Shown here: positions 36,783-52,688 of the stretch, piece by piece
Position numbering within the stretch: the stretch's first letter is position 1
Layout of the letters: each line of letters opens with the position of its first letter
NCBI GenBank assembly: GCA_000720995.1
Contig: JOEL01000013.1
Span: 238,591-302,590 of the forward strand
Length of the DNA stretch: 64,000 nt
Direction of reading: 5' to 3'
Source of the DNA: Streptomyces celluloflavus
GTDB taxonomy: Bacteria; Actinomycetota; Actinomycetes; Streptomycetales; Streptomycetaceae
The notes under the pieces: model-generated
Seen by the model: only the letters and a program-made list of their open reading frames with translations
Database searches by the model: none
Told to the model about the DNA's origin: nothing
Program-made: the position numbers and the translations under genes

Positions 36783-37484
36783 TCAGTCGCGTCGCAGGTG
36801 GGCGGGGAGCGCGATGTCCGGGGGCAGCGCCGGGTCGGGTACGAGCGCGCCGCGCACGGTGGTCAGCGGCAGTACGCCGGCCCACAGGCCCAGTTGCGCG
36901 TCGGGGCTGTCGCCGTCGTCCGGCGGACCGGTGCGCACCTTCACCGACGCCTCGTCGAGGCCCAGCGCCAGCAGGGAGGTCGCGGCGAGTTCCTTGCGGC
37001 TGGGGCGCCGTGCGTAGTCCCACTGGCCGGGGGCGGCCTGTTCGGTCAGGACCCGCAGGCCGGTGAGCTTCTCCGCGTCGTCGGTGACCTGGCGCGGTAC
37101 GCCGTAGATCATGGCGCAGCGGTAGTTGATGCCGTGCTCGAAGACCGACCGGGCCAGGACCACACCGTCCACGTGCGTGACCGTCACACAGACGGTCCCG
37201 TCCGGGGCCTGTATCAGGCTGCGGCTGGCCGACGAGCCGTGCAGGTACAGGGTGTCGGCGGTGGCGCCGTACACGGTCGGTACGACCATGGGGGTGCCGT
37301 CCACGAGGACGCCCAGGTGGCAGAGGAAGCCCGCCGCCAGGACGGCGTCGAGGTCGCTGCGGGCGGTACGGCCCTTCTCCTTCATGCGGCGCAGCCGGGT
37401 GCGGTCGGTGACCGGCAGCTCGGTGTGCGGCTGTCCGGCGGCCGGGAGTTCGGTGCCCGGGGGGCGGGGCGGCGGGTTGTTCAA
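36783..37484 (-). CDS. Pyridoxamine 5'-phosphate oxidase-related (PPOX-class) flavin-binding protein
   Basis: 233 residues from a TTG at 37484 that overlaps the upstream stop (TTGA), preceded by GAGG. The pattern LPVTDRTRLRRMKEKGRTAR, AVLAAGFLCHLGVLVDGTPM, VPTVYGATADTLYLHGSSAS and then HGINYRCAMIYGVPR is that of FMN- or F420-type split-barrel proteins of the PPOX superfamily. It may act as a flavin-dependent redox enzyme on an intermediate of the hydrazine pathway. Its direct coupling to the DAO fusion supports a shared pathway. Confidence 0.78.
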   Translation of the reverse strand: MNNPPPRPPGTELPAAGQPHTELPVTDRTRLRRMKEKGRTARSDLDAVLAAGFLCHLGVLVDGTPMVVPTVYGATADTLYLHGSSASRSLIQAPDGTVCVTVTHVDGVVLARSVFEHGINYRCAMIYGVPRQVTDDAEKLTGLRVLTEQAAPGQWDYARRPSRKELAATSLLALGLDEASVKVRTGPPDDGDSPDAQLGLWAGVLPLTTVRGALVPDPALPPDIALPAHLRRD

Positions 37485-39565
37485 CGTATGACCTCTGTCG
37501 GTGCGGGCGGTACTGGCTGTCCGGTGTCCGCGGTCCCGGTGGGGTCCGCGTGGTCCGTCCGCAGCAGCCGCCGGACCGCCGCCGCAGCTTCGGCGGCGGC
37601 ACCGGGTGCCGTCTTGAAGCCGGCACCGGACCAGCAGGCCGCCACCACGACGCGCGGTTCCCCCGGGAGCGGTCCCAGGAACGGACCGTCCGGATGGTAC
37701 AGATCGGCGCCGAACCTGCCCAGGAGATAACGGGCTTGGCCGATCCACGGCCAGCGGCGGACGGCGCCGGAGCGGATGTGGGCGATCTCCTCGCCGGTGA
37801 GCTGCCCGCCGCCCGCGGCGGGTACGTCCCATTCGTCCACCGGGCGTCCGGTGAGGTGTCCGCCGGCCGCCGGGCCGCCGGTCTGGGGCCGTCCCCACAT
37901 ACCGGTCGTCAGATCGCTGACGGCGGGCAGCCGGCGGCCGCCGAGGTCGAAGAAGGCGTACCGGATGCGCTTGGTGCGCGGTGCGCCGCGGCCGGGGCGC
38001 ACCGGCAGGCGGTCGCCCAGCAGGGCCGGGGTGCCGCTGCCCGCCGCGACCACCGCGCACCGCGCGGTCACGGCGCCGGCCGGGGTGACGGCGCGGACGC
38101 CGCGCGGGTGCGTTTCGAGTGCCACCACGGGGCCGGGCAGCAGGGTGGCTCCGTACCGCAGGGCCCGGGTGCGGTAGTGGGCCGCGGTGGCGGGCGGATC
38201 GGCGTAGCCGCCGCCGGGCTCCCACACCGCGCCGGCGATGCCGTCGGCCGCCAGGTCCGGCCAGCGGTCGCGGACCTCCGCGGGGCCGAGGAGGTCCACG
38301 GTCACCCCGGCGTCGCGCAGCTGCGCGAGACCGCGTTCGGCCTCTTCGACGTCCCCGTCACCCAGCAGGACGAGGGAGCCGGTGCGACGGAAGCCGCAGG
38401 CGGCGCTCTGTCCGGCGGGATTCCCCCACAGCAGCCCGTGGCTGCGGACGGCCAGGGCGCGCATCGCCGGATCGGGTTCGTAGGCCCGGACCAGGCCGCC
38501 CGACCAGTCGGTGGCCGAGGCGGTGCCGGGGCCGGGCGCGGTCATGGCGACGGACAGTCCGGCCTCGGCCAGGTGGGCGGCGGTGGCGGCGCCGACCACA
38601 CCGGCGCCGACGACCACCACGTCCGGTCCGGGCGCGGGACCGGGCGCGGGGGACGCCGCCCGGAGCACCGGTACGACTTCCCAGCCCGCGGCGCCGTCGG
38701 CGTCCACCGGGTCGCCGTCCGCGTCGAACGCCAGGCCCGCGTGGGCGCGCAGGGCGGCCAGCAGCCGGCCGCCGCGCGCGCCCGGGTCACCGGCGAGGGC
38801 CCGGACCAGGCAGCCGAAGGCGGCGTCGACGTGGGTGTAGGGGCCGCCGCGCAGCCGTACGACGCGGGCGCCGCGGGCCTCGTCGGCGCCCAGCAGCCCG
38901 GCGAACTCGGCCACGGCGCAGTCGTCGGTGAACAGCAGCCGGCCCGCGAAGCCGGCCGTGCGCAGCCGCCGGGCGGTGGCCGCCGCCCCGAAGTGCGTGC
39001 CGCAGACGACCAGCGCGGCCGGGCCGTCCCGGCGTACCGGTGGCGCGGTCCGCCAGGCGGCGCGGAACCGTTCGGCGAGCCGGCGTCCGTAGTCGGTGCC
39101 GTCGTCGGCGACCGCCGGGGTGCCGGTCGCCTCGGTGGCGCGGCGCAGCGCGGCGGGCTGGCCCGTGTCGAGCGGGCACCAGCGCAGCGCGCCGCCCCCG
39201 CCGCCGCGGAGCAGGCCGGGGGCGGTGGCCAGCGGCAGCAGTAGCGGCAGTCCGGCATCGCGGTAGACGGGCAGGGCGTGGCCGGCGCCGATGCTGTTGA
39301 AGTGCCCGACGACGGCGGCGTATCCGCCGTCGCCGGTCACCGCCTCGGCGACGGCGGCGGCCCGTCCGGCGTCCCCGCGGTCGTCGTGGCGCTCCCAGGT
39401 GATCCCGCGGTCGCGGTGGGCGTCCGCCGCCCGGGTCAGCAGTTCGCCCCAGGCGGCGCGCGGTCCGCTGAACGGTCCGACCACCGCGACGCGCAGCGGC
39501 CCGGCCGCCGCGGCGGGGTGTGAACCGGCCGCCGCGGCGGGGTGCGGGCCGGCCGTCTCAGCCAC
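37481..39565 (-). CDS. Fusion of a periplasmic-binding-protein-like domain with a DAO-type FAD oxidoreductase
   Basis: 694 residues from a GTG at 39565 that overlaps the MetRS-like stop by 8 bp. Residues ~18-300 resemble the type I periplasmic-binding (Leu/Ile/Val receptor) fold, with VAVVGPFSGPRAAWGELL, AVVGHFNSIGAGHALPVY and RLLFTDDCAVAEFAGLLG. There is no signal peptide, so it is cytosolic. From ~314 a complete DAO flavoprotein follows (DVVVVGAGVVGAATAAHLAE, TDWSGGLVRAYEPDP, and the C-terminal ACWSGAGFKTAPGAAAE). DAO flavoenzymes in known hydrazine pathways oxidatively cleave the N-N-linked lysine adduct. The receptor-like domain may bind the amino-acid part. I know of no common enzyme with this architecture. 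Confidence 0.8.
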   Translation of the reverse strand: MAETAGPHPAAAAGSHPAAAAGPLRVAVVGPFSGPRAAWGELLTRAADAHRDRGITWERHDDRGDAGRAAAVAEAVTGDGGYAAVVGHFNSIGAGHALPVYRDAGLPLLLPLATAPGLLRGGGGGALRWCPLDTGQPAALRRATEATGTPAVADDGTDYGRRLAERFRAAWRTAPPVRRDGPAALVVCGTHFGAAATARRLRTAGFAGRLLFTDDCAVAEFAGLLGADEARGARVVRLRGGPYTHVDAAFGCLVRALAGDPGARGGRLLAALRAHAGLAFDADGDPVDADGAAGWEVVPVLRAASPAPGPAPGPDVVVVGAGVVGAATAAHLAEAGLSVAMTAPGPGTASATDWSGGLVRAYEPDPAMRALAVRSHGLLWGNPAGQSAACGFRRTGSLVLLGDGDVEEAERGLAQLRDAGVTVDLLGPAEVRDRWPDLAADGIAGAVWEPGGGYADPPATAAHYRTRALRYGATLLPGPVVALETHPRGVRAVTPAGAVTARCAVVAAGSGTPALLGDRLPVRPGRGAPRTKRIRYAFFDLGGRRLPAVSDLTTGMWGRPQTGGPAAGGHLTGRPVDEWDVPAAGGGQLTGEEIAHIRSGAVRRWPWIGQARYLLGRFGADLYHPDGPFLGPLPGEPRVVVAACWSGAGFKTAPGAAAEAAAAVRRLLRTDHADPTGTADTGQPVPPAPTEVIR

Positions 39566-41150
39566 CGAAGACCGGTCCGGCCGGCGGGTCGAGGCGGCGG
39601 CCCGGTTCGGGTGCGGCGAGGGCGGCCGCGGTGACCGGGCGGCCGGGCCGCTCGCCGAGCAGGGCGGCGAGGCGGGCGGCGCCGGCCGGCATGACCGGGG
39701 CGGCCCAGGCGGCCAGCGCCGCGGCGGCGGCGAGCTGGGCGGTGAGGGCGGCGCGGTGGGCGGCGGCGCCGTCGGGGCGGTCGCGTTCGTGGGCGTGCAC
39801 ATGCCCGAAGTCGGCGGTGCGGGCCACCGCGTCGTCCAGCAGCGCCACGGCGCGGCGCGGGTCGAACCCCGCCGTCCCGTACGCCTCGCGCAGTTCCGCG
39901 ACGGTGCGCAGCAGCCCGGCCCGCAGCCGCTCCCAGTCGGGTCCGGCGGGCCGTTCGGCGGGCACCCGGCCGTCGCAGTCCCGTGCGACGGCGGCGCACA
40001 GCCGGTGCAGCCAGCCGTCCCAGCCGGTGCGCAGGTGGCCGATGGTGCGGTCCAGGTCGGCCGGGGCGAAGCTGGTCTGGCGGCCGTCGGGGCGGTCGGC
40101 GAGCACATGGTGGCGCAGGGCGTCGGAGCCGGCCCCGGCGAGCGCGTCGTGGGCCCAGACGGCGTGCCGCCGGCTGGTGGAGAACTTCTGCCCGTCCAGT
40201 TGGTAGAACTCGTTGACCACGAAGGCGGTGGGCAGCGGGAGGGCCGCGTCGTACGCCATGAACAGGGCGGGGAAGAGCACGGCGTGGAAGTAGCCGTTGT
40301 CGAAGCCGAAGAACTGCACGGGTCCGGTGGCCGGTCCGCCGCCGGGCCCGCGCCGGTCCGACTGGTAGAGGTAGCCGGGTGCCATCTCGCACCACACGTA
40401 GGCGCGCTGGTCGGTGAATCCGTCGACGGGCACCGGGACGCCCCAGTCGGCGGGGTGGCTGACGGCGATCTCCGGCAGTCCGTCGGCGAGCATGGTCTCG
40501 CACAGCACCCGCAGATGGGGCGGCATGCGGACATCGGCCCAGAAGGCGGTGAGCCGGTCGGCGAAGGGCGCCAGCGGGAAGTACAGGCGGGTGCAGTCGC
40601 GCAGTTCGGCCGGGAGTCCGCAGGTCTCGCAGTGCGGATCGGTCAGGTCGCCGCAGTCGTTGGGGCGGCCGCAGGGTTCGCAGGCGTTGCCGTGGGAACC
40701 GGCGCCGCAGTGCGGGCACTTGCCGGAGACGTACGCCTCGTACAGCCAGCGCCGGCAGCCGGTGCAGTAGGGCAGCGGGCGGGTGCGGGCGACGAGGTGC
40801 CCGGCACCGTGCAGCCGGCGCAGGAAGTCCTGGACGAACGCGGGGTAGTCCGCGTCGCGGCGGGGGTGGACGATGCGGTCGAAGGCGACCTCGGCCGCGT
40901 GCCAGGTCCGTTCGATGGACGCGCCGTAGCCGTCGGCGACGTCCTCGCCGGTGCGGCCGTCCTTGGCGCCGCGTACCGGCACATAGCTCTGGTGGTCGTC
41001 GAGTCCGGTGGTGTAGCGGGCCTCGACGCCGTCGGCGGCCAGGAAGCGGCGCAGCACGTCCCCGGCCACGTACGGCCCGGCGATATGGCCGACGTGCAGA
41101 TCGCCGTTGGGGGTGGGGGGTGTCGCGGTGATCCAGACCGGGGCGCTCAT
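39558..41150 (-). CDS. Methionyl-tRNA synthetase-like enzyme of a hydrazine synthetase
   Basis: 530 residues. Class I synthetase signatures are H-V-G-H at 19-22 (NGDLHVGHIAG) and a KMSKS-like K-F-S-T-S at ~323-327 (LDGQKFSTSRRH), plus two CxxC-type zinc knuckles (CTGCRRWLYEAYVSGKCPHC and CGDLTDPHCETCG). The anticodon-binding region is short. It is coupled by ATGA to a cupin gene, and the divergent operon starts with an N-hydroxylase. In the s56-p1 pathway the didomain Spb40 (cupin then MetRS-like) esterifies N6-hydroxylysine with an amino acid and rearranges it to an N-N bond. Here the same two modules are adjacent separate genes in the same order. A resistance MetRS is the alternative but does not explain the cupin. 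Confidence 0.9.
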   Translation of the reverse strand: MSAPVWITATPPTPNGDLHVGHIAGPYVAGDVLRRFLAADGVEARYTTGLDDHQSYVPVRGAKDGRTGEDVADGYGASIERTWHAAEVAFDRIVHPRRDADYPAFVQDFLRRLHGAGHLVARTRPLPYCTGCRRWLYEAYVSGKCPHCGAGSHGNACEPCGRPNDCGDLTDPHCETCGLPAELRDCTRLYFPLAPFADRLTAFWADVRMPPHLRVLCETMLADGLPEIAVSHPADWGVPVPVDGFTDQRAYVWCEMAPGYLYQSDRRGPGGGPATGPVQFFGFDNGYFHAVLFPALFMAYDAALPLPTAFVVNEFYQLDGQKFSTSRRHAVWAHDALAGAGSDALRHHVLADRPDGRQTSFAPADLDRTIGHLRTGWDGWLHRLCAAVARDCDGRVPAERPAGPDWERLRAGLLRTVAELREAYGTAGFDPRRAVALLDDAVARTADFGHVHAHERDRPDGAAAHRAALTAQLAAAAALAAWAAPVMPAGAARLAALLGERPGRPVTAAALAAPEPGRRLDPPAGPVFGG

Positions 41151-41527
41151 GCGCCGGACCGGGGGCCGGGCTCCGGTCCGTCCGGCTGCGGTTCGTGCAG
41201 CGGCCAGTACAGGGAGACCCAGACGAGGGTGTCCGTACCGGGGTTGTGCACCACGTGTTCGTGCTTGCGGGGCAGGACGACGACGTCCCCGGCCTCGAAC
41301 GTGCCCTCCTCGCCGGCCAGGTCGAGGCGGCCGGCGCCGGACGTGATGATCATGACCTCGTCCTGGTCGTGGCAGTCCGGTGCGGAGCTGGCGCCGGCCG
41401 GCAGGAAGCAGGCCATGGCGCCCAGCGGGGGTTCCTCGTCCTGGCCCTGCCAGGGGATGACCCGCTGGCAGGCCATGCCGAACTCACGGGTGGCCGCGTC
41501 CTCGTTCAGCCGAAATTTCGTGATCAT
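41147..41527 (-). CDS. Small cupin, probable N-N-bond-forming subunit of hydrazine synthetase
   Basis: 126 residues from the ATG at 41527; no better in-frame start is present. It is a single cupin barrel with metal-ligand motifs in CHDQDEVMIITSGAGRLDL (His, Gln/Glu) and DVVVLPRKHEHVVHNPGTD (His-x-His). It matches the role of the zinc cupin that precedes the MetRS-like domain in Spb40-type hydrazine synthetases, which converts the O-aminoacyl hydroxylamine to a hydrazine. It is first in its operon and overlaps the MetRS-like gene by ATGA. Confidence 0.85.
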   Translation of the reverse strand: MITKFRLNEDAATREFGMACQRVIPWQGQDEEPPLGAMACFLPAGASSAPDCHDQDEVMIITSGAGRLDLAGEEGTFEAGDVVVLPRKHEHVVHNPGTDTLVWVSLYWPLHEPQPDGPEPGPRSGA

Positions 41528-41855
41528 AAAAGGTATGCACCCCGAAAGTTGATCCGGCACGTCGTCCGGAGATCCGGAATTCACGCTTCGCCGCGGCAAC
41601 TGTGGTGCGGGGCGTTCGCGGAGGTCAACGGATCTCCACGCGATGTGCAGGAAGGTGCCACCGGCGGTGGCGCAAAGAAGCGACAAGAGGCGACAAAGGG
41701 CGACAGGTTGCCCGGGTCGGACAGGGAGAACGGCAGCCCCCTGCCATGTTTCTCCCCACCCGCCCCAATGTTCCCTCGCGGCCCGTTAGCGTCCCGTCAG
41801 CTCAGTCGGCGAGGACCCGGCAGCGATACCGGTAGCGAGGGAAGGGCGAAGTTTC
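41528..41855. promoter_or_regulatory. Divergent control region of the hydrazine cluster with 10-bp phased repeats
   Basis: 328 bp between the leftward cupin operon and the rightward N-hydroxylase operon. At 41681-41707 three copies of CGACAA(G/A)-type sequence occur exactly 10 bp apart (CGACAAGAGG, CGACAAAGGG, CGACAGG). Direct repeats phased on one helical turn between divergent operons are typical of a cooperative activator. No other gene is visible in the gap. The twin LuxR-like regulators at the far end of the cluster are candidate binders. Confidence 0.55.
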
Positions 41856-43184
41856 ATGGGGAATCCGCTCGGTCACTGTGCGCCCGTCCATGACGTCGTG
41901 GGAATCGGCTTCGGCCCGGCCAACCTGGCCCTGGCCATCGCGCTGGAGGAGCACAACGAGAGCGTGCCGCCCGACCGGGCGGTCACCGCGATGTTCCTGG
42001 AGCGGCAGCCGCGGTTCGGCTGGCACCGCGGCATGCTCATCGACGGCGCGACCATGCAGGTGTCCTTCCTCAAGGACCTCGCCACCCTGCGCAACCCCAC
42101 CAGCCGCTTCGGCTTCGTGCCCTATCTGCACGACCGCGGCCGCCTCGTGGACTTCATCAACCACAAGATGCTCTACCCCACCCGGGAGGAGTTCCACGAC
42201 TACCTGGAGTGGGCGGCCGCCGGCGTCGACCATCTGGTCGGGTACTCCTCCGAGGTGACCGAGATCCGCCGGGCCGGCGATCTGCTGGAGGTGGCGGTGC
42301 GCCGCCCCGACGGCACCGCCGTGCACCTCGCCCGCAATGTCGTCGTCGCCTGCGGACTGCGCCCCCGGCTTCCCGAGGGCGTCAAACCCTCCGAACACGT
42401 CTGGCACAGCAGCGAGTTGCTGCCCCGGCTCGCGGACGCCGGCCAGGACGGCGCCCGGCGGTTCGTGGTGGTCGGCGCGGGGCAGAGCGCGGCGGAGGCC
42501 GCCGAGTACCTGCACCGCACCTATCCCGCCGCGGAGGTGTGCGCGGTCTTCTCCCGCTACGGCTACAGCCCCGCCGACGACAGCCCGTACGCCAACCGCG
42601 TCTTCGACCCGGAGGCGGTCGACGTCTACTTCGGCGCGGACGAGGACGCCCGGCGGCAGCTGATGGCGTACCACCGCAACACCAACTACGCCGTGGTCGA
42701 CCTCGAACTCATCGAGGACCTCTACCGCCGCGCCTACCAGGAGAAGGTCCACGGCCGCGAACGGCTGCGCGTCCTGGGCACGACCGAGGTGACCGAGGTG
42801 TCCGACGGCGCCGGCGGCGCGACGGTGCGCACCCGCTCGCTGACCACCGGGGCCGTGGACGAACTCACCGCCGACGCCGTAGTGTTCGCCACCGGCTACG
42901 AGGAGCAGGACCCCCTCCCGCTGCTCGGCGCGGTGGCCGCCGACTGCGCGCGGGACGCCGCGGGGCGGCTGCGGGTCGGCCGCGACTACCGGGTGGCGAC
43001 CACCGCCCCCGCGGGGCCCGGCATCTACCTCCAGGGCGGCACCGAGCACACCCACGGCATCACCTCCTCGCTGCTGTCGATGGTGGCCGTACGGTCCGGC
43101 GAGATCCTCGGGTCGGTACTGGCCCGGCGCGCCCCCGCGCCCGCCGCCGAACGGCCCACCGTGGCCGGCGCCGGCCATGAGTGA
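41856..43184 (+). CDS. L-lysine/L-ornithine N-monooxygenase
   Basis: 442 residues. The start VVGIGFGPANLALAIALEEH is diagnostic of amino-acid N-hydroxylases (SidA/IucD/PvdA type). FAD, NADPH (FVVVGAGQSAAEAAEYL, ~205) and substrate-lid motifs (NTNYAVVD, FATGYEEQDPLPLL at ~344) are all present. It hydroxylates the side-chain amine of lysine or ornithine. There is no siderophore synthetase nearby; instead the cupin and MetRS-like genes are divergent to it, so it most likely makes N6-hydroxylysine for N-N bond formation. It overlaps the next gene by 8 bp. Confidence 0.92.
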   Translation: MGNPLGHCAPVHDVVGIGFGPANLALAIALEEHNESVPPDRAVTAMFLERQPRFGWHRGMLIDGATMQVSFLKDLATLRNPTSRFGFVPYLHDRGRLVDFINHKMLYPTREEFHDYLEWAAAGVDHLVGYSSEVTEIRRAGDLLEVAVRRPDGTAVHLARNVVVACGLRPRLPEGVKPSEHVWHSSELLPRLADAGQDGARRFVVVGAGQSAAEAAEYLHRTYPAAEVCAVFSRYGYSPADDSPYANRVFDPEAVDVYFGADEDARRQLMAYHRNTNYAVVDLELIEDLYRRAYQEKVHGRERLRVLGTTEVTEVSDGAGGATVRTRSLTTGAVDELTADAVVFATGYEEQDPLPLLGAVAADCARDAAGRLRVGRDYRVATTAPAGPGIYLQGGTEHTHGITSSLLSMVAVRSGEILGSVLARRAPAPAAERPTVAGAGHE

Positions 43185-44304
43185 GACCGGGGCCGACGCC
43201 GAGGTCGTGGTGGTCGGCGGCGGTGTGGTCGGCGCCGCGGTCTTCCACGAACTGGCCGCCCGCGGCGCCGCCGTCACCCTGGTCGAACAGGACCGCGGCG
43301 GGCTGGGCTCCACCGCCTGGAGCGGCGGCATCGTCCGCTGCTACCACGACGACCCGGAGCTGACCGACCGCGCCCTCACCGGCTGGCGCCACTTCCGGGA
43401 GTTCGCCGCGCACACCGGCGAGAGCGCCGCCTTCCACCCGTGCGGCTTCCTCTACCTGCCGCACCCCGACCGCGCCGGGGCCGCCCGGCGCGAGACCGCC
43501 CGGCTGTCGGCGCACGCGCCCGCGCGGTGGCTGACCGCGGAGGAAGTGGACAGCCGCTTCGGGCAGTTGCTCGCCGCCCCCGCCCGCGGCGGCGCCGTAT
43601 GGGAGCCGGAGGCCGGCTGGCTGGACGCCACCGAGGTGACCCGCGGCTATCTGCGGGCCGGCCGACGCAAGGGCGGCACGGTGCTGGAGGGCGTCGCGGT
43701 GCACAGTCCGCTGCGCGGGGGCGACGGCCGCCTGCACGGCGTGCGGACCACCTCGGGCGCGGTCCGGGCCGCCACCGTGGTGCTGGCCGCCGGGGCCGCG
43801 ACGCCCGGTCTGCTGACGTCCTGGGGGATCGAGCACGACCTGTGGGCCCAGGCCGTCCAGGTCGAACTGCGGCGCCCCGCCGCCCCGGTCACCGGCCAGC
43901 CCGCCTACACGGACGACGAGTTCGACGTCAACGGCCGCCCGGATCCCGACTCCGGCGGCATCTACCTGGGCCACCCGACCGGCCGCCGGGTGCCCGGCGC
44001 GGGCCGCGAACCCGTGGACGCCGCCCAGTCGCAGCTGGCCGCCGAGGCCGGGGCCCGGCGGTGGCGCTGGGTGCCCGGCAGCCAAAGCCTGGGCGGGCTG
44101 CGGGCCGCCGAGTGCTGGGCGCCGGACGGCGGCGGCCGGGTCGTCCGCCACCCGCGCGAGCCGGGCCTGCTGCTGGCCACCGGCTTCAACGGGGGCGGAT
44201 TCAAGATGGCGCCCTGGGCGGCCGCCGAGACCGCCCGCCTGATCGGCATCGACGGCAACCACGCGCCGCCCCCGGCGCACGACACGAACGGAACCAGCCG
44301 ATGA
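43177..44304 (+). CDS. DAO-type FAD-dependent oxidoreductase
   Basis: 375 residues. Dinucleotide motif EVVVVGGGVVGAAVFHELAA, the FAD-site STAWSGGIVRCYHDDPEL and the C-terminal LLATGFNGGGFKMAPWAA define the glycine/D-amino-acid oxidase family. In s56-p1-type pathways a flavin enzyme of this family oxidatively releases the hydrazino acid (hydrazinoacetate or its hydrazone) from the lysine backbone. It is one of two DAO proteins in the cluster, overlapping the N-hydroxylase and coupled by ATGA to the aldolase-type gene that follows. Confidence 0.88.
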   Translation: MSETGADAEVVVVGGGVVGAAVFHELAARGAAVTLVEQDRGGLGSTAWSGGIVRCYHDDPELTDRALTGWRHFREFAAHTGESAAFHPCGFLYLPHPDRAGAARRETARLSAHAPARWLTAEEVDSRFGQLLAAPARGGAVWEPEAGWLDATEVTRGYLRAGRRKGGTVLEGVAVHSPLRGGDGRLHGVRTTSGAVRAATVVLAAGAATPGLLTSWGIEHDLWAQAVQVELRRPAAPVTGQPAYTDDEFDVNGRPDPDSGGIYLGHPTGRRVPGAGREPVDAAQSQLAAEAGARRWRWVPGSQSLGGLRAAECWAPDGGGRVVRHPREPGLLLATGFNGGGFKMAPWAAAETARLIGIDGNHAPPPAHDTNGTSR

Positions 44305-45230
44305 GTCTGCCCACAGCCAAGGACGTCAAGGGTGTTCTGCCGGTCGTCCTCATGCCCTACACCGACAGCGGCGAACTGCACGAGGACGACTTCCGCCGCC
44401 AGGCCGACCACATGTTCCGGGCCGGCTGCGACGGGTTCGTCGTCGGCCAGGTCTCGGAGGTCCTGCGGCTGACGCACACCGAGCGGCTGCGCGTCGCCGA
44501 GCTGTGCGCCAAGTCGGCCGACGGGCGCGGGGTGTCGGTGATGAGCACCGGTGCGGAGACCGCGGAGGCCGCGGTCGAGTACAGCCGGCACGCGCAGGAC
44601 GTCGGCGTCGACGCGCTGCTCGTCATGCACCCGGCCACGATCGGCCTGGGCGAGGACGAGATGGTCGGCTACTACAGCCGCGTCATCGAGTCGGTCGACA
44701 TCCCGGTGATCGTCCACCACGCCAAGAGCCTGGCCAAGCAGCCGCTGACCATCGGCGCCCAGGCCCGCCTGCTGGAGACGTACGGCGAGGAACGGGTGAT
44801 GTTCAAGCCGGAGGCGCAGCCCACCCCGCCGCGGGTGAGCCAGCTGCGCGACGCCACCGGGGGCCGGGCCAGGGTCTTCGAGGGCGACGGCGGCATGATG
44901 CTCCTGGACTGCCACGGCCGGGGCCTGACCGGGACCATCCCCGCCACCGAGATCGCCGAGATCGTCGTGACGCTGTGGCGGCTGCTGGAGGCGGGCGACC
45001 GGGCGAACGCCGAACGCCTCGGCCACCCGCTGTCGTACCTCATGTGCCACATGATGAACAGCACCGACTACTACCTGTCGATCGCCAAGCGCTTCCTGAA
45101 GGAACGCGGCCTCATCACGACCACCTATGTCCGGGGTCCCAGCCGCCACGTCCTCGACGACGAGTCGTGGACCGAAGTGAACCGCACCTACCAGCACCTG
45201 CTCACCCTCGCGAAGGAGCTCGCTCGATGA
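44301..45230 (+). CDS. Dihydrodipicolinate synthase/N-acetylneuraminate lyase-family aldolase
   Basis: 309 residues, class I pyruvate-aldolase TIM barrel. The Schiff-base lysine is visible at ~K169 (VMFKPEAQ), in the DHDPS position. The usual GTTGE loop is replaced by VGQVSEVLRLT and the catalytic Tyr of the YN-x-P motif by His (VIVHHAKSLAK, ~139), so it is not a housekeeping DHDPS. The family adds or removes pyruvate at an aldehyde, or dehydrates keto acids. It may build the carbon chain onto an aldehyde or hydrazone made by the DAO enzymes. Confidence 0.85.
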   Translation: MSLPTAKDVKGVLPVVLMPYTDSGELHEDDFRRQADHMFRAGCDGFVVGQVSEVLRLTHTERLRVAELCAKSADGRGVSVMSTGAETAEAAVEYSRHAQDVGVDALLVMHPATIGLGEDEMVGYYSRVIESVDIPVIVHHAKSLAKQPLTIGAQARLLETYGEERVMFKPEAQPTPPRVSQLRDATGGRARVFEGDGGMMLLDCHGRGLTGTIPATEIAEIVVTLWRLLEAGDRANAERLGHPLSYLMCHMMNSTDYYLSIAKRFLKERGLITTTYVRGPSRHVLDDESWTEVNRTYQHLLTLAKELAR

Positions 45231-45616
45231 AGAACTACGCCTTCACCATCCGTCTCCGGGACCAGGCCGCCGCCGACAAGTACATCGCCCTGCACCGGGA
45301 GGTGTGGCCGGAGATCGTCGGCCCCGGCGGCGCGCTGGACACCATCGGCGTCCGCAAGCTCCAGATCTTCTTCATCGAGCCGCTCACCCTCTTCATGTAC
45401 GTCGAGGCCGAGGACCACTTCGAGCCGGTGCGCGACTTCCTGCGCGCCAACGACCTGGACCCCCGGGTCCAGGAGTGGGACGACATGATGCACGACGGCG
45501 GCGGCAGCCTCCTGGTGCGCCACCCGGGCAACGACGGCCGCCTCAACTGGGCCCCGATGCAGCGCGTCCACCACGTCGACTTCACCGACACCCTCCCGGA
45601 CCTGGAGGACAAATGA
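45227..45616 (+). CDS. L-rhamnose mutarotase-like (dimeric alpha-beta barrel) protein
   Basis: 129 residues, overlapping both neighbours by 4 bp. It has a ferredoxin-like dimeric alpha/beta barrel of the RhaM type: NYAFTIRLRDQAAADKYIAL, HREVWPEI and GVRKLQIFFIEPLTLFMYVE, with the conserved His-x-x-x-W-P. In sugar metabolism these interconvert anomers. In a biosynthetic operon such folds also serve as small cyclases or isomerases. The family assignment is firm, but the reaction here is unknown. Confidence 0.8.
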   Translation: MKNYAFTIRLRDQAAADKYIALHREVWPEIVGPGGALDTIGVRKLQIFFIEPLTLFMYVEAEDHFEPVRDFLRANDLDPRVQEWDDMMHDGGGSLLVRHPGNDGRLNWAPMQRVHHVDFTDTLPDLEDK

Positions 45617-46665
45617 GCACGCCCGCACCGCACGCACCGGCCGTCCGGGACCGGCTGACCGTCCTGGACTGCACGCTGCGGGACGGCGGTTACTACACCA
45701 ACTGGGAGTTCGACGACGCCCTGGTCGAGGACTATCTGCGGGTCTGCGCCCACACCGGCATCGACATCGTGGAGCTCGGCTACGCCCGGTTCGACCCGGG
45801 CGGCCGCGGCCCCTACGGCAGGCTCCCGGCCGGGCTCACCCCCAACCTGCCCAAGGTCCTGCCCGACGGCCACGGACTGCGGTTCGCCGTGATGGTGGAC
45901 GCGTCCGGCCTCGCGGGCGTCCCCGCCGCCGAGACCGGCCCCCGCCTCGCGGAGCTGCTGGCCACCGGCTCGCTCCCGGTCGACCTGGTACGTGTCGCGG
46001 TGCACCACAGCCGCGCCGCCGGCCTCGCCGCCGAGATCGCCTCGCTGCGCGCCGCGGGCTTCGGCGTCGGCCTCAACCTGATGCAGATCGACCTGGCCAC
46101 CCCCGCCGAAGTCACCGCCCTGGTACGGACGGTGGCGGACCTGGGGCCGCTGGAGGCGGTGTACGTCGCCGATTCGCTCGGCTCGCTGCACGCCGCGCGC
46201 ATCGCCGAACTCGTGGAGCTCTTCCGCACCGGGCAGGACGCCCCGGTCGGCATCCACGGCCACGACAACCAGGGGTTCGCGCTGCGCAACACCCTGGCCG
46301 CCGCCGAGGCCGGGGCCACCTGGCTCGACGCCACCGTCCTGGGCATGGGCCGCGGCGCGGGCAACGCCCGCACCGAGCAGTTGCTCGCCGCCCTCGGCAC
46401 CGCCCCCGACACCCTCCAGCCGATGCTGGACCTGGTGGCCCGGCGGTTCGAACCGCTGCGGGACACCCACCGGTGGGGCGCCGGCGCCCTGTACGCGATC
46501 GCCGGGATGCGCCGCGTCCACCCGACGTACGTACAGCGGCTGGAGGAGAACGCGGAGCGGGACGTCGAGACCAAGCTGCGGGCCCTGCGCCACCTGGCCG
46601 GGCAGCACGCGACGTCGTTCACCCCGCAGGCACTGGAGGACGCGCTGCGCCATGCGTGTGCCTGA
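45613..46665 (+). CDS. DRE-TIM metallolyase / 4-hydroxy-2-oxovalerate aldolase-like protein
   Basis: 350 residues. Metal motif TVLDCTLRDGGYYTNWEF (residues ~16-33) and HGHDNQG (~215) are those of the HMGL/isopropylmalate-synthase/DmpG superfamily. It corresponds to the aldolase catalytic domain of DmpG-type enzymes, without the extra communication domain. It makes or breaks a C-C bond with pyruvate or an acyl-CoA using a divalent metal. It is the second aldolase in this operon. Confidence 0.87.
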   Translation: MSTPAPHAPAVRDRLTVLDCTLRDGGYYTNWEFDDALVEDYLRVCAHTGIDIVELGYARFDPGGRGPYGRLPAGLTPNLPKVLPDGHGLRFAVMVDASGLAGVPAAETGPRLAELLATGSLPVDLVRVAVHHSRAAGLAAEIASLRAAGFGVGLNLMQIDLATPAEVTALVRTVADLGPLEAVYVADSLGSLHAARIAELVELFRTGQDAPVGIHGHDNQGFALRNTLAAAEAGATWLDATVLGMGRGAGNARTEQLLAALGTAPDTLQPMLDLVARRFEPLRDTHRWGAGALYAIAGMRRVHPTYVQRLEENAERDVETKLRALRHLAGQHATSFTPQALEDALRHACA

Positions 46666-47449
46666 GACCGGCCCGGTCCCCCTGGAGGAGGCGCTGGCCG
46701 ACCACACCGCGGTGGTGTTCGACCTGGACGGGGTGCTCGTCGACTCCAACGAGCTGAAGGTGGACTGCGTACGCGACGCGCTCGCGGTCTTCGGCCCGGA
46801 ACTCGTCGATCCCTTCGTCGACGAGTTCCGCCGCACCTTCGGCCGGACCCGGCGGGAGCACTTCCTCGCCTTCCACCGCGACTACCTCGGCGGCCGCAAC
46901 ACCGGGCGCGACGAGGACTTTGAGCCGTTCTACGCGCGCTACGCCGGTGACTACGCCGCCCTGCTGGGCGAGCGGTACGCCAAGGCACCGCTGTGTGCGC
47001 ACGCCGACCGGCTGGTGCCCGCCCTCGCCGCCCGCGGCGTACCGCTGTACGTGGCGACCGGCACGCTCACCCCGGAGGCCGAGCGGCTGCTGGGGTGGCA
47101 CGGTCTGCTGGACGCCTTCCGCGGTGTGCTGGGCGGGGAGGAGCCCAAGGCGCGGCGGCTGTCCGGCGTGGTGGCCGGAACCGGCGCCGCGCCGCACCGG
47201 ACGGTCCTGCTGGGCGACTCCCGGCAGGACCTGCTCGCCGCGGGGGCCGCCGGCACCGCCTTCGTCCTCGTCACCGGGTACGGCTTCTTCCCGCCCGGCG
47301 AGATCCTGGGCGGCCCCGGCGGACCGGCCGGCAAGGAGGTGGCGGTGGCGGCCGGATTGGATCCGCGCGGTTTGGTGACCGGGGCCGTCGTGGCGCAGGG
47401 TCCTGGGCAGGCAGGTCCGGTGAACGCCGAACCTCGGTCGGCGCCGTGA
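46652..47449 (+). CDS. HAD-superfamily hydrolase
   Basis: 265 residues, overlapping the aldolase by 14 bp. The HAD motifs are AVVFDLDGVLVDSNELK (motif I, ~23), YVATGTLTPEAERLL (motif II Thr), the Lys in EEPKARRLSG and TVLLGDSRQDLLAAG (motif IV). It is probably a phosphatase that removes phosphate from a pathway intermediate. The last ~50 residues are Gly/Pro rich and unlike the family. Confidence 0.85.
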   Translation: MRVPETGPVPLEEALADHTAVVFDLDGVLVDSNELKVDCVRDALAVFGPELVDPFVDEFRRTFGRTRREHFLAFHRDYLGGRNTGRDEDFEPFYARYAGDYAALLGERYAKAPLCAHADRLVPALAARGVPLYVATGTLTPEAERLLGWHGLLDAFRGVLGGEEPKARRLSGVVAGTGAAPHRTVLLGDSRQDLLAAGAAGTAFVLVTGYGFFPPGEILGGPGGPAGKEVAVAAGLDPRGLVTGAVVAQGPGQAGPVNAEPRSAP

Positions 47450-47567
47450 GCGGACCGGGCAGGTCCGGGCCCCGGTGCCCGGACCGCCCGGTACCGCGAG
47501 GGCCGGCCCGCCGCACCGGCCCGCTCCGCCCGGAGCCGGCCGCCCGAACCGGAAGGACGACGCAGCC

Positions 47568-48284
47568 TTGACGACCGACCGCACCGACCGCACCTCCCCG
47601 GTGGTCATCTCCGGCGTCAGCAGAGGACTGGGGGCCGCGCTGGCCCGCCGGTTCGCCGAACTGGGCCGGCCCGTCGCCGGCTGCGCCCGCGACCGGGCCG
47701 CGCTCGCCGCCCTGCGCGCGGACCTCGGCCCCGGCCACCTCGTCAGCGCGGTGGACGTCACCGACGCGGACGCGGTCGCCCGGTGGGCCGCCGAGGTCGG
47801 CGAACGCCTGGGCGCCCCCGGCATGGTGGTGGCCAACGCCGGGCACATCACCGCGCAGGCCCCCGTCTGGGAGGTGCCCCCGGCGGAGTTCGAGCACATG
47901 ATGCGGGTCAACGTCGTGGGCGTGTACGCGATGGCCCGTGCCTTCCTGCCGCTCCTCGGCGACGGGGGCACGCTGGTCTCCGTCTCCTCCGGCTGGGGCC
48001 GCAATCCGCGCGGACTGCTCGCCGCCTACACCGCCGCCAAGTTCGCGGTGGAGGGGTTCACCCGGGCCGTCGCCCAGGAGACCGGCGCGCTGCGGCCGGG
48101 CGTGACGGCCGTCTCGCTCGACCCCGGCGGCGGGGTGGACACCGACATGCTCGCCACCTGCCTGCCGGATGAGCACAGCCAGTACGAAGGCCCCCGCGAG
48201 TGGGCGCTGCGGGCCGCGGACTACCTGCTGCACCATGTGCCCGCCGCGCCGAACGGCGCGGCACTCACCGTCCCGTCCGGCTGA
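47568..48284 (+). CDS. Short-chain dehydrogenase/reductase
   Basis: 238 residues from a TTG at 47568, chosen because GGAAGGA lies 10 bp upstream and no later start keeps the cofactor motif. SGVSRGLGAALARRFAELGR is the NADP(H) Rossmann motif, VVANAGHIT the NAG, and VSVSSGWGRNPRGLL plus YTAAK the active site. It is likely a ketoreductase step of the rightward pathway. It is the second SDR of the cluster. Confidence 0.85.
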   Translation: MTTDRTDRTSPVVISGVSRGLGAALARRFAELGRPVAGCARDRAALAALRADLGPGHLVSAVDVTDADAVARWAAEVGERLGAPGMVVANAGHITAQAPVWEVPPAEFEHMMRVNVVGVYAMARAFLPLLGDGGTLVSVSSGWGRNPRGLLAAYTAAKFAVEGFTRAVAQETGALRPGVTAVSLDPGGGVDTDMLATCLPDEHSQYEGPREWALRAADYLLHHVPAAPNGAALTVPSG

Positions 48285-48339
48285 CGGCGCGCCCCGCCCG
48301 GACCGCGGCCGACCGGCCGCCCCAGCACAGGAGAAGCCC

Positions 48340-49605
48340 ATGCCAGCACGCGGTACGGTCGCCCTCGTCGACGCGTACTCCTCGGCCCACCGGCTCGCAC
48401 CGCTCTTCCGGGAGCGCGGCTACCGCTGTGTCCATGTGCGCAGCACCCCCGTCATCCCCGCGGTGTACGCCGGTTCGTTCGTCGCCGGTGACTTCGCGGC
48501 CGAGGTGGTGCACGACGGCGCCCTAGACGACACCGTGCGGCAGTTGCGCGCGCAGCGGCCGGTGGCGCTGCTGGCCGGGATCGAGAGCGGGGTGGAGCTC
48601 GCCGACGAGCTGAGCGAGGCGCTGGGACTGCGCACCAACGGCACCGCGCTGAGCGCGGCCCGGCGCGACAAGTTCCGGATGGCGGAGGCGGTCCGTGCCG
48701 CCGGGCTGCGCGCGGCCCGCCAGCTGCTCACCGCCGACGAGGACGAACTGCGTGCCTGGTACGAGGAGATGGCCCGGGAGCAGGGCTCCGCGGGGCGGGT
48801 GGTGGTCAAACCCGTCAAGAGCGCCGGCAACGACGGGGTGTTCTTCTGCGACAGCCCGGAGGAGGCCGGCGCCGCCTTCCGCGCGATCGTCGGCACCCGC
48901 AGCGCCCTGTCCCTGGAGAACGACGCGGTGCTGGCCCAGGAGTACCTGTGGGGCGGCGAGTTCTACGTCAACACGGTCAGCCTGGACGGTGTGCACCATG
49001 TCTGCGACGTGTGGAAGACCAGCCATCTCCACGCGAACGGCGTCCGCGACCTGCTGGACGGCGCCTGGCTGTTGGAGCGGCACGGCCCCGTCCAGGACCG
49101 GTTGGTGCGGTACGCGTGCGGGGTGCTGGACGCGCTGGGCATCCGCAACGGCCCGTCGCACACCGAGCTGAAGCTCACCCCCGACGGGCCGTGCCTGATC
49201 GAGACCGGTGCCCGGGTCTGCGGCGGGGACCTGCCGAACCTGGTGCGGCGGGCGGTGGGCGAGAGCCAGCTGGAGTGGACGGCCGACGCCTACACCGACC
49301 CCGAGCGCTTCCGGTCCCGGGCCCAGGCGCCCTACACCGTGCGGGAGTTCGTCTCCTCGCAGGCGGTGGTGGCGCCGCGTCCGGGCACGCTCCTGGGGTA
49401 TCCGCGGCTGGACGAGGTCAAGGCGCTGGAGAGCTTCCACGAGGTGAAGATGGCGGTGGCCCCCGGTGAGCGCGTCCACCGGACCGTCAACGACTTCACC
49501 ATCCCCCTGCTGATCAACCTCGCCCATCCGGTGCAGGACGTCGTGCTGCGCGATTTCGGCACCGTGCGCTACCTGGACGGGGAGGGCTTCTATGACCTCG
49601 CCTAG
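48340..49605 (+). CDS. ATP-grasp ligase
   Basis: 421 residues from the ATG at 48340, preceded by AGGAGAAG. A pre-ATP-grasp Rossmann domain (TVALVDAYSSAHRLAPLFRE) is followed by the ATP-binding motifs GRVVVKPVKSAGNDGVFFC, LAQEYLWGGEFYVNTVSLDG, and the metal site TELKLTPDGPCLIETGARVC. The family (as in L-amino-acid alpha-ligases) joins a carboxylate to an amine through an acyl phosphate. In this cluster it probably forms the amide or hydrazide bond between the hydrazine unit and another acid. It overlaps the exporter gene by 14 bp. Confidence 0.9.
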   Translation: MPARGTVALVDAYSSAHRLAPLFRERGYRCVHVRSTPVIPAVYAGSFVAGDFAAEVVHDGALDDTVRQLRAQRPVALLAGIESGVELADELSEALGLRTNGTALSAARRDKFRMAEAVRAAGLRAARQLLTADEDELRAWYEEMAREQGSAGRVVVKPVKSAGNDGVFFCDSPEEAGAAFRAIVGTRSALSLENDAVLAQEYLWGGEFYVNTVSLDGVHHVCDVWKTSHLHANGVRDLLDGAWLLERHGPVQDRLVRYACGVLDALGIRNGPSHTELKLTPDGPCLIETGARVCGGDLPNLVRRAVGESQLEWTADAYTDPERFRSRAQAPYTVREFVSSQAVVAPRPGTLLGYPRLDEVKALESFHEVKMAVAPGERVHRTVNDFTIPLLINLAHPVQDVVLRDFGTVRYLDGEGFYDLA

Positions 49606-50623
49606 CCGGACCGGGCGGGCGGCGGGCGCGTTCCGGGCGGCGGCGTGGGGCGGGCCCCTCCTGGTGCTCGTCTACTGCCTCGCCAACGCGGTCAAGTCGG
49701 TGGTCGAGGGCGCGCTGGTGCAGCACATCAGCCCGGAGTTCTACGCCTTCAACACCTTCGCGGTCACCCAGCTCTTCTATCTGGCGCTCAACCGCGATCT
49801 GCGCGAACTGGCGGCCGCCGTACGCCGCTCATGGCGCGATGTCCTCGCGTACAACGTGACGACGACGCTGAGCTGGCTGGCCGTGCTGTACGCGCTCACG
49901 GTCTTCGAGCCGGTGGTGGCCAACTCCGTCATCGTGGGGCTGGTGCCCTGTCTGACGATCCTGCTCGGCGGTCTGCTGCGCCCCCAGGCGCGGCCCAGCC
50001 GGGTGGAGGTGCTGTCCTCCGTCGGCGTGCTGGCGGCCATGGCCTACCTCGCGGTGACCACCCTGGCCGGTTCGGCGGCCACCGGGTCGGTCTCGGCCGG
50101 CGGTTTCGCCCTCGGACTGGCCGCCTGCGCGCTGACCGCGGGCGCCGTGGCGGGCAACACCTTCTACACCAAGCGGCTGGGCGAGGCCGGGATGCGCGTG
50201 GGGCAGATGATGGCCTGCCGGTTCTGGCTGCTGCTGGTGTCCACGCTGGTCATCTTCCTGGTGCGGGGCACCGCGAGCCCGTACAGCGGGACGAACGTGG
50301 CGCTGTACCTCGGCCTCGGCCTCGGGGTGATCGGCACCCTCTACGTCCTCCAGGTGGGCATCACCCGCACCGAGCCGATGACCGTGTCGCTGCTGTTCGG
50401 CAGCAATCTGGTGATGACGTTCGCCCTCCAGTTCTTCGACCCCCGGCTGCACCAGTCCGGCCACACGCTGACCGGGGTGCTGCTGCTGACCGGCTTCATC
50501 CTCTGGGGCGCGCTGGCCCGGTCCCGGCCCCCGGCGGACCGGACGCCGGCCGGGGAACCAACCGGGGAACCGGCCGCGTCCGCACCGGCGGACGGGGCGC
50601 CACCGGGCGCCCGGACGCCCTGA
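49592..50623 (+). CDS. DMT/EamA-family exporter
   Basis: 343 residues with about ten hydrophobic helices in two repeats (LLVLVYCLANAVKSVVEG ... TTTLSWLAVLYALTVFEPV ... LYLGLGLGVIGTLYVLQVGI) and a hydrophilic Pro/Ala C-tail. This is the EamA drug/metabolite transporter pattern. It is the last gene of the rightward operon, overlapping the ATP-grasp gene, so it is the likely product exporter and self-protection gene. Confidence 0.85.
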   Translation: MTSPSRTGRAAGAFRAAAWGGPLLVLVYCLANAVKSVVEGALVQHISPEFYAFNTFAVTQLFYLALNRDLRELAAAVRRSWRDVLAYNVTTTLSWLAVLYALTVFEPVVANSVIVGLVPCLTILLGGLLRPQARPSRVEVLSSVGVLAAMAYLAVTTLAGSAATGSVSAGGFALGLAACALTAGAVAGNTFYTKRLGEAGMRVGQMMACRFWLLLVSTLVIFLVRGTASPYSGTNVALYLGLGLGVIGTLYVLQVGITRTEPMTVSLLFGSNLVMTFALQFFDPRLHQSGHTLTGVLLLTGFILWGALARSRPPADRTPAGEPTGEPAASAPADGAPPGARTP

Positions 50624-50655: not shown

Positions 50656-51435
50656 TCAGCCGTCGCGCGGCAGCAGGCCCGCCTCGGCGGCGCGCACCCC
50701 CGCCTGGAACCGCGAGGTCGCGCCGAGCAGCGCCATGATGTCCGCGACGTGCCGGCGGTAGGTGCGCACCGACATCGCCAGTTCCCGGGCCGCCGTGTCG
50801 TCGCTGACGCCGTCCCGCAGCCGGACCAGCACCTTGCCGGCCACCTCGGGCCAGTTCCGCCGCCGCAGCCGCAGGTACTCCTCCACTCCCGTCGCCCCCT
50901 GCCAGACGGTGTCGAAGAGCGCGCGCAGGCTCGCCACCACGGACGGCGCGCGCACGACGGCGGCCGCGCCCGGACCGGGCTTGCCGGTCCGCAGCAGGGC
51001 GACCTCGCCGTCGGCGATGACGGCGGTCAGCGGGAGCAGCCGGGCCATCCGGACCTCGGGCCGCACCGTGTCACCGTCGTCCGAGAGCGCGGTCAGCAGG
51101 GCGCACTCCGACGACAGCGGCACCGCGCACCGCCATGACTGCGGGGTGCACAGGATGCGGGGTTCGGGGTGCGCGGTGTACGGCGGCAACGCCTGGCGCA
51201 GGGCCGCGATGACCGTGCCGTTCACCTGCGGGAGACCGGCCAGCAGCACCTCCACGCTGCTGACCGCCCGGGACATCAGCACCCCGGCCGTGGCGCCGAA
51301 GGCGTCGTGGTGCGGTTCCACGACGGTCACCTGCGCGTCGCTCGCGGTCTGGTCGCGCCGTCTGACGGCGAGCGCCGCCAGCAGTTCGCGCACCTCCATG
51401 AGCTCCCGCTCCATGTCCTTCGTCCCCGGCAGCAC
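50656..51435 (-). CDS. LuxR-type HTH regulator (cluster-linked, paralog A)
   Basis: 259 residues. The N-terminal ~185 residues are a sensor-like region (VTVVEPHHDAFGATAGVLMS) and the C-terminal ~65 are a LuxR-like helix-turn-helix (KVLVRLRDGVSDDTAARELA, then MSVRTYRRHVADIMALLGAT). No receiver domain is apparent. It lies 15 bp downstream of a clear paralog with the same layout; the RTYRRHVA(D/E)IM recognition helix is shared. Likely a pathway-specific activator pair for the hydrazine cluster. Confidence 0.82.
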   Translation of the reverse strand: MLPGTKDMERELMEVRELLAALAVRRRDQTASDAQVTVVEPHHDAFGATAGVLMSRAVSSVEVLLAGLPQVNGTVIAALRQALPPYTAHPEPRILCTPQSWRCAVPLSSECALLTALSDDGDTVRPEVRMARLLPLTAVIADGEVALLRTGKPGPGAAAVVRAPSVVASLRALFDTVWQGATGVEEYLRLRRRNWPEVAGKVLVRLRDGVSDDTAARELAMSVRTYRRHVADIMALLGATSRFQAGVRAAEAGLLPRDG

Positions 51436-52266: not shown

Positions 52267-52688
52267 CGTCCCACCACCACCGGCCGCCCGGACGGGTGTT
52301 CCGAGGGGGATAAGTGGTCCTGGCGGGGGCCGGTGCCCTCGCCCGGCGACCGGTGTGCGAGCCGGCCGACGGCGGGTCCGGGTCGCCCCGGCGGGCCCGT
52401 CGGCCCCTCCGGCCTTCTTGCCACGAGAAACACCCCCGCACCCCGGTGCACCACGGCGTGGTGCTCGCCTGCCTCGTTCCGGCCCGGCACCCGGGCGACC
52501 GCGAAGCGGCCAACGAGTTGGTCCTCTTGAGCAATCGGTCGCAATATACCGCACATGCGTTCTGACTGGTGAGGGGTTGATCACCGACTGTCGCCCCGCC
52601 CCGGACCGGCCCGGGTCCGACGGCGGTCAGCCGTCATCCGCCGCCCACGGCACGCCACTTGACGGACTCCCGGGAGCGCCGCCGGACT
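52267..52688. other. 422-bp gap upstream of the LuxR pair, promoter-like patch
   Basis: The segment 52521-52580 (GTTGGTCCTCTTGAGCAATC then GGTCGCAATATACCGC) is relatively AT-rich and probably holds the promoter of the minus-strand regulator pair. The remainder shows no supported gene. Confidence 0.4.

What the first reader, a model, noticed from the sequence alone, without database searches (positions are those of the whole stretch)
39558..43184. Split hydrazine synthetase: separate cupin and MetRS-like genes opposite a lysine/ornithine N-hydroxylase
The cupin (41147-41527) and MetRS-like (39558-41150) genes overlap by ATGA in the order found as one polypeptide in Spb40 of the s56-p1 pathway. 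An amino-acid N-monooxygenase starts the divergent operon, and a DAO flavoenzyme follows it. Together these are the complete machinery for N6-hydroxylysine plus amino acid to an N-N bond. The cluster therefore should make a hydrazine-derived natural product, and the discrete cupin and synthetase allow the two half-reactions to be studied separately.
Basis: partly seen in the sequence, partly recalled or inferred. Interest (0 to 1): 0.87.

Follow-up and report, generated by a model that had tools for sequence, protein, structure and literature searches.

The report
Split hydrazine synthetase with sensor-fused oxidase
A Streptomyces gene cluster carries a known kind of two-protein enzyme that joins two nitrogen atoms, but beside it sits an unusual oxidase fused to an amino-acid-binding domain, and the product of the cluster is not known.

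Summary
Cupin 41147-41527(-) and MetRS-like 39558-41150(-) overlap by ATGA; a Lys/Orn N-hydroxylase and a DAO flavoenzyme open the divergent operon. The hydrazine-synthetase reading is well supported by homology. The closest solved fold to the MetRS-like protein is the PyrN C-terminal domain, ahead of the true MetRSs listed. The genome has another, higher-scoring MetRS. The cupin's D51/H53/E57/H91 align with the metal residues of the proven N-N-forming cupin RHS1 and are kept in 25 of 25 rows. But split synthetases have been published and reconstituted since 2021 (PMC8664883), so the split is not new. The binding domain occurs in 27 of 27 related loci (one ORF with the oxidase in 25, separate in 2) and in 0 of 19 other MetRS-like loci. 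I met no description of it in the papers searched. The window's subtype adds aldolase-like, mutarotase-like, HAD, SDR and ATP-grasp proteins; its product is unknown. No activity was tested. New variant of a known kind.

The parts
41147..41527 (-). standalone Zn-type cupin, N-N forming half of the hydrazine synthetase; D51, H53, E57, H91
   Evidence: Cupin_2; D51/H53/E57/H91 align to RHS1 D63/H65/E69/H103, 25 of 25 rows
39558..41150 (-). standalone MetRS-like amino-acid-activating, ester-forming half; HVGH and KFSTS motifs intact
   Evidence: tRNA-synt_1g; best PDB match 9l8v, the PyrN C-terminal domain; motifs; another place, on contig 37, scores far higher with the MetRS family model
37481..39565 (-). 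694-aa fusion: LivJ/LivK-type amino-acid-binding domain (about residues 23-300, no signal peptide seen) + DAO-family flavin oxidase (about 313-670)
   Evidence: Pfam Peripla_BP_6 (34.4 bits, cut-off 31.7) and DAO; LBP alignment; conservation; DAO fold; presence pattern
36783..37484 (-). PNPOx-like protein (Pyridox_ox_2)
   Evidence: 15 of 27 related loci and also near two more distant MetRS-like genes, L098 and L099
35794..36666 (-). ATP-grasp-like protein (no Pfam hit)
   Evidence: the 48169 ATP-grasp protein matches this gene's counterpart in L018 at 29%, 61 bits
34967..35737 (-). short-chain dehydrogenase SDR1
   Evidence: adh_short
41856..43184 (+). L-lysine/L-ornithine N-monooxygenase, MbtG-like
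43177..44304 (+). second DAO-family flavin oxidase, single domain
44301..45230 (+). DHDPS-family aldolase-like protein; K169 kept 9 of 9 (taken as the Schiff-base Lys), H139 in 9 of 9 where I recall the family's usual Tyr
45227..45616 (+). RhaM-like (L-rhamnose mutarotase family); H23 kept 10 of 10
45613..46665 (+). HMGL-like, nearest to 4-hydroxy-2-oxovalerate aldolase models; HxHxN motif
46652..47449 (+). HAD hydrolase
47475..48284 (+). short-chain dehydrogenase SDR2 (start uncertain: 47475, 47568 or 47601)
48169..49605 (+). ATP-grasp ligase-like protein (start uncertain: 48169 or 48235)
   Evidence: ATP-grasp_4 6.7e-09; starts
49592..50623 (+). EamA transporter
   Evidence: in L044 a gene with a sub-cut-off EamA match (24.8 bits, cut-off 28.2) follows a 424-aa gene at the place of the ATP-grasp gene
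50656..51435 (-). possible LuxR-type regulator (weak hit)
   Evidence: GerE E 0.015, below cut-off; similar genes near several relatives
51451..52584 (-). possible LuxR-type regulator (weak hit)
   Evidence: GerE E 0.041, below cut-off; relative in L043

Best explanation
Two divergent operons with mostly overlapping genes encode a hydrazine pathway. Inferred steps: (1) the MbtG-like monooxygenase makes N6-hydroxylysine; (2) the MetRS-like protein adenylates an amino acid with ATP and forms an O-acyl-hydroxylamine ester without tRNA; (3) the separate Zn cupin rearranges the ester to an N-N bond; (4) one or both DAO-type oxidases cleave a C-N bond of the lysine-amino acid hydrazine. The oxidase of the cupin operon carries an amino-acid-binding (LivJ/LivK-type) domain that most likely captures an amino-acid-shaped substrate or product, or gates the oxidase by it. 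(5) Aldolase-like, mutarotase-like, HAD, SDR and ATP-grasp proteins elaborate the hydrazine into a small amino-acid-like product exported by the EamA protein. Shown here: gene order, homologies, conserved catalytic residues, structural match to PyrN, conservation of the binding-domain/oxidase pair. Not shown: any activity, the amino acid, the ligand, the product.
For: MetRS-like: 9l8v is the best PDB sequence match (E 7.3e-82; 9vq4, also labelled methionine-tRNA ligase and not identified here, 8e-82; next 1rqg, a true MetRS, 1.3e-61) and the best fold match (35% identity, TM 0.87, E 1.5e-41), named there as the PyrN C-terminal domain. Another MetRS match on contig 37 scores 494.6 bits against 224.5 for ours. 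D52, W253, H289 and K322-F-S-T are kept in 25 of 25 rows, S326 in 24 of 25. Cupin: RHS1 metal residues aligned, 25 of 25. NMO and cupin in 26 of 27 related loci; the missing one, L032, is a 3.4-kb contig. Binding domain in 27 of 27 here and 0 of 19 other MetRS-like loci. Residues aligned with LBP W18, S79, T102 (W39, S91, T114) are kept 16 of 16. In Cellulomonas (L042) a separate binding-domain ORF sits between MetRS-like and DAO: profile E 8.7e-20, with L042 not in the profile. Biochemistry of the family: PMC8664883.
Against: The sister group of this MetRS-like clade (11 loci) has no cupin, NMO, oxidase or binding domain by profile search and a different neighbourhood, so similarity of the MetRS-like protein alone does not prove N-N chemistry. 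The cupin scores slightly better against cupins 4mv2 and 4rd7 (and, with the profile, 5j7m), whose roles no call gave, than against RHS1. The binding-domain ligand is unknown, and the fold searches of the fusion tested only the oxidase half. LBP residue roles are recalled, not from a call.
Confidence: 0.86

Rival explanations
1. The MetRS-like protein is a duplicated housekeeping or resistance methionyl-tRNA synthetase and the cupin is unrelated.
For: It passes the Pfam MetRS model; resistance copies of synthetases occur in clusters (recalled).
Against: NCBIfam MetRS equivalog cut-offs are far from met (238 bits against 587, 212 against 336); PyrN is the closest named structure; cupin and NMO accompany it in 26 of 27 related loci.
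Confidence: 0.04
2. The two DAO enzymes together remove both carbon chains, so the cluster delivers free hydrazine (as proposed for albofungin), later transferred to another scaffold.
For: A second DAO gene beside the fused one in the window and in 9 of 27 related loci; albofungin orfDEF is cupin, tRNA synthetase, FAD oxidoreductase (PMC9469721 passages), and a review describes an Asn-synthetase-like enzyme that condenses free hydrazine there (PMC11705231 passages); an Asn-synthetase gene lies next to the cluster in L023.
Against: No Asn-synthetase-like gene was recognised among the window genes given to Pfam; the second DAO was not found in the other 18 of 27 related loci (loci are cut, so this is a lower bound).
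Confidence: 0.12
3. The binding domain is a passive relic or folding partner without ligand.
For: Its C-terminal lobe is diverged from LBP: phmmer aligned only about residues 2-147 of 283; the two distant standalone relatives L062 and L063 differ at four of the six ligand-type residues, and Cellulomonas L042 at three.
Against: In the 16 fused rows W39, S91, T114, H191 and D215 are invariant and Y159 is kept in 15, and the domain was found in 27 of 27 related loci.
Confidence: 0.2

Closest known systems
PyrN (pyrazomycin) and Spb40 (s56-p1) cupin/MetRS-like hydrazine synthetases
   Same: Cupin upstream of a MetRS-like enzyme; same kind of metal and ATP motifs (PyrN); N-hydroxylase in the cluster
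   Different: Two proteins instead of one. PyrN has Arg at the places of our G259 and H289 and lacks the Asp of our D52 (alignment), so glutamate is unlikely here
Rhodococcus jostii RHS1 and other standalone pairs (Zhao 2021, PMC8664883)
   Same: Discrete cupin and discrete MetRS-like protein; D-x-H-x3-E...H metal set
   Different: The R. jostii cluster was found by its putative saccharopine dehydrogenase gene (paper); here there are DAO-type oxidases, one with a binding domain
Spb39 / Tri27 / Apy10 oxidases
   Same: FAD oxidase of one family beside the synthetase (review passages; Tri27)
   Different: The oxidase at 37481-39565 has an added LivJ/LivK-type domain; the passages read mention none in those enzymes
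Albofungin orfDEF/abf6 or Afn8/9/18
   Same: Cupin, tRNA synthetase and FAD oxidoreductase genes plus a Lys 6-monooxygenase
   Different: Aromatic polyketide cluster; whether its oxidase has the binding domain could not be checked
Leucine/LIV-binding proteins (LivK, LivJ)
   Same: N-lobe sequence and amino-acid-binding residues
   Different: No export signal seen; fused to an enzyme

Membership tests
cupin/MetRS-like hydrazine synthetase | Zn-cupin with (D/H)xHx3E...H | tested here: met
   alignment to RHS1; 25 of 25 rows; metal itself not measured
cupin/MetRS-like hydrazine synthetase | MetRS-like protein with ATP motifs, distinct from the housekeeping enzyme | tested here: met
cupin/MetRS-like hydrazine synthetase | N-hydroxylating monooxygenase in the same cluster | tested here: met
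   26 of 27 related loci
cupin/MetRS-like hydrazine synthetase | both parts in one polypeptide | tested here: not met
   separate genes overlapping by ATGA; not a defining feature, since standalone pairs are accepted members (PMC8664883 abstract)
cupin/MetRS-like hydrazine synthetase | tRNA-independent ester formation and N-N rearrangement in vitro | not testable with these tools
   -
Spb39-type DAO oxidase | DAO/sarcosine oxidase fold | tested here: met
Spb39-type DAO oxidase | single-domain enzyme | tested here: not met
   37481-39565 has an N-terminal Peripla_BP_6 domain; 43177-44304 meets it
LivJ/LivK periplasmic binding protein | type-1 binding protein sequence and ligand residues | tested here: met
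   N-lobe only; fold of this half not tested
LivJ/LivK periplasmic binding protein | secretion signal | tested here: not met
   by eye on the N-termini; no signal peptide program was run

The most novel reading that the evidence does not exclude
A hydrazine-forming lineage has turned an amino-acid transport receptor into a cytosolic ligand-gating or capture module of its C-N-cleaving flavin oxidase, so that the reactive hydrazine is released only when the right amino-acid-like ligand is bound; and the window's subtype uses this hydrazine in aldolase-based carbon-carbon bond formation to make a product class (perhaps a pyridazine-like amino acid) not yet described.
Probability: 0.3. Interest if true: 0.75.

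Novelty: new variant of a known kind. Interest (0 to 1): 0.5.

Why it matters
Few enzymes form N-N bonds. The pair itself adds a subfamily of standalone synthetases of known kind. The conserved binding-domain oxidase offers a testable question that the pathways read about here do not raise: how a reactive hydrazine is handed on or released under control. The aldolase-rich cluster is a concrete target for a new hydrazine-derived product.

Tried and rejected
Housekeeping MetRS: rejected. Glutamate as partner amino acid: judged unlikely from the PyrN alignment; Gly, Ala, Ser or Tyr not resolved. The pairs of S. malaysiensis and Cellulomonas flavigena listed in a review may be orthologues (S. samsunensis is S. 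malaysiensis subsp. samsunensis), but neither the passages found nor the sections read gave their substrates, and supplements could not be read. Pyridazomycin as product: only a lead (ornithine, oxaloacetate and glycine origin, review passages); no test possible. Plasmid searches meant to find a Rhodococcus reference gave none among the 30 of 84 records listed or the 3 records found. VIA-align listed mainly oxidase-half matches for the fusion, so the binding domain's fold rests on sequence and on a model of pLDDT 79. In one search the L042 ORF was itself a query, so its match there is a self-match; (profile without L042, and 37.5% identity, E 9e-13 to the window domain) replaces it. In one search cupins of distant synthetases were largely missed; the profile search finds a cupin in 8 of 8 distant synthetase loci (L098 and L099 were in the profile) and in 0 of 11 sister loci. 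L027's split of binding domain and oxidase may be a frameshift. L043 and L041 have broken MetRS-like frames; they were left as they are.

Not in print: the binding-domain/oxidase fusion was not met in the listings of searches (open-licence PMC library only) nor in the passages read; subscription papers, including the 2024 hydrazine synthetase phylogeny work cited in the review, were not seen.
Full report
What is there. The stated ORFs exist at the stated places, and the cupin and MetRS-like genes share the four bases ATGA at 41147-41150 on the minus strand. Codon-position composition marks them as coding and Pfam names each. The window lies in an 8.68-Mb genome; with the MetRS family model another place on contig 37 scores 494.6 bits and ours 224.5, so ours is an extra copy.

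Wider anatomy. Minus operon: cupin, MetRS-like, binding-domain/oxidase fusion, PNPOx-like, ATP-grasp-like, SDR (41527 down to 34967). Plus operon: N-hydroxylase, DAO, DHDPS-like, RhaM-like, HMGL-like, HAD, SDR, ATP-grasp, EamA (41856 to 50623). By the starts chosen, 9 of the 13 junctions inside the two operons overlap by 4 to 14 bases (coordinates). Possible LuxR-type regulators follow (weak hits). Genes for a lanthipeptide-like pathway (28536-34850) lie beside it; they were queries and gave no listed match in the relatives, so I treat that set as separate.

Is it a hydrazine synthetase? The MetRS-like protein's best PDB sequence match is 9l8v (E 7.3e-82); 9vq4 follows (8e-82; labelled methionine-tRNA ligase, not identified further, its aligned range shifted by 14 residues against 9l8v's), then the true MetRS 1rqg at 1.3e-61. 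Its model (pLDDT 87.9) matches 9l8v best, which names as the PyrN C-terminal domain with a glutamyl-adenylate analogue (TM 0.87, 35% identity). NCBIfam MetRS cut-offs are missed widely. Cupin residues D51, H53, E57 and H91 fall on RHS1 D63, H65, E69 and H103 (allowing 3 extra residues in the chain numbering) and hold in 25 of 25 rows. Against that, cupins 4mv2 and 4rd7 score better than RHS1. Zhao et al. (PMC8664883; abstract, Results parts 1-2 of 3 and sections 12 and 24 read) showed the two-step mechanism, that PyrN halves work in trans, and that standalone pairs occur in nature. So the assignment is strong and the split is already known.

Hydroxylase. MbtG (lysine) 523 bits, KtzI (an ornithine enzyme, per the passages) 428, 3s5w (ornithine) 283, 5cqf (named lysine 6-monooxygenase) 242: lysine is favoured but not proven.

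Relatives. A cupin search found 6 of 394 family genomes, our own included; a contig scan gave 20 loci, a plasmid search one close record more, and a binding-domain search found 10 of 391 order genomes, our own included. NMO and cupin: 26 of 27, L032 being a 3.4-kb contig. HMGL-like: 19 of 27. PNPOx: 15 of 27. RhaM-like: 10 of 27. DHDPS-like and second DAO: 9 of 27 each (the stretches held end about 10 kb from the core, so these counts are lower bounds).

Result that cuts the other way. The sister clade of ours in the tree (11 loci, 100/100; our own 22-row clade 90/92, the fork joining the two 94/90, neither starred) has no cupin, NMO, oxidase or binding domain by profile search in the 15-20 kb held, while 8 of 8 more distant loci have a cupin, 7 of 8 a DAO and 5 of 8 an NMO (two of those cupins were in the profile). 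The sister loci scanned by Pfam show MshA-like glycosyltransferases (L087, L092, L096), PIG-L deacetylases (L087, L092), and in L092 also an Asn synthetase and a sub-cut-off PrpF match. The four sister rows viewed have altered or lost KMSKS motifs. So the MetRS-like scaffold seems to have been reused for something else, and MetRS-like similarity alone is not proof; our call rests also on the cupin, the NMO and the intact motifs. More generally, 60 of 297 family genomes, our own included, hold a MetRS-like match at E <= 1e-65; some of the weakest may be ordinary MetRSs.

Product. K169 of the DHDPS-like protein (9 of 9; H139 in 9 of 9, where I recall Tyr), H23 of the RhaM-like protein (10 of 10) and the HxH pair of the HMGL-like protein (18 of 18 and 17 of 18) suggest working aldolase and mutarotase chemistry. 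In 8 of 18 HMGL-like rows, the eight loci of the subtype without DHDPS-like and RhaM-like genes, the metal-type Asp is Thr. With ATP-grasp ligases and an exporter this fits a small amino-acid or dipeptide-like hydrazine product. Pyridazomycin-like chemistry is only a thought. Free hydrazine by double cleavage is a live rival.

Verdict. Known enzyme kind, correctly spotted; new variant because of the binding-domain oxidase and the aldolase cassette. No activity was measured.

Noticed in passing
L087-L096, L103 (e.g. L092:7669-15765): Sister MetRS-like proteins without cupin or NMO; the loci scanned by Pfam have GT4 (MshA-like) and PIG-L (MshB-like) genes, L092 also an Asn synthetase and a weak PrpF match; 7 of 11 have an SDR1-like gene within the stretch held; KMSKS altered or lost in the four rows viewed. 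Looks like a mycothiol-like pathway with a reused synthetase scaffold.
   Followed up: partly
L062:9529-10668 and L063:9513-10337: Standalone relatives of the binding domain near a regulator-like gene and an EamA transporter, with no synthetase, cupin or NMO in the stretch held; four of six LBP-type ligand residues differ.
   Followed up: partly
window 28536-34850: LanB-type dehydratase, LanC, a second LanB C-terminal-type protein and a methyltransferase: a class I lanthipeptide-like set next to the hydrazine cluster.
   Followed up: no
L023:14412-18417: Asn-synthetase-like and BTAD-regulator genes border a window-like cluster in S. beigongshangae; an Asn-synthetase-like enzyme transfers hydrazine in albofungin according to a review.
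   Followed up: no
L021, L031, L033-L036, L039, L040: A second subtype keeps HMGL-like, PNPOx and the core, with no DHDPS-like or RhaM-like gene seen in the stretch held; its HMGL-like protein has Thr in place of a metal-type Asp in 8 of 8 loci.
   Followed up: partly
L041 and L043, MetRS-like genes: MetRS-like reading frames appear broken in S. violaceus and Streptomyces sp. NBC_01483.
   Followed up: no
G192 (L017, L018) and Micromonospora sp. KC606 (L029, L037): Two different clusters of this clade in one genome.
   Followed up: no
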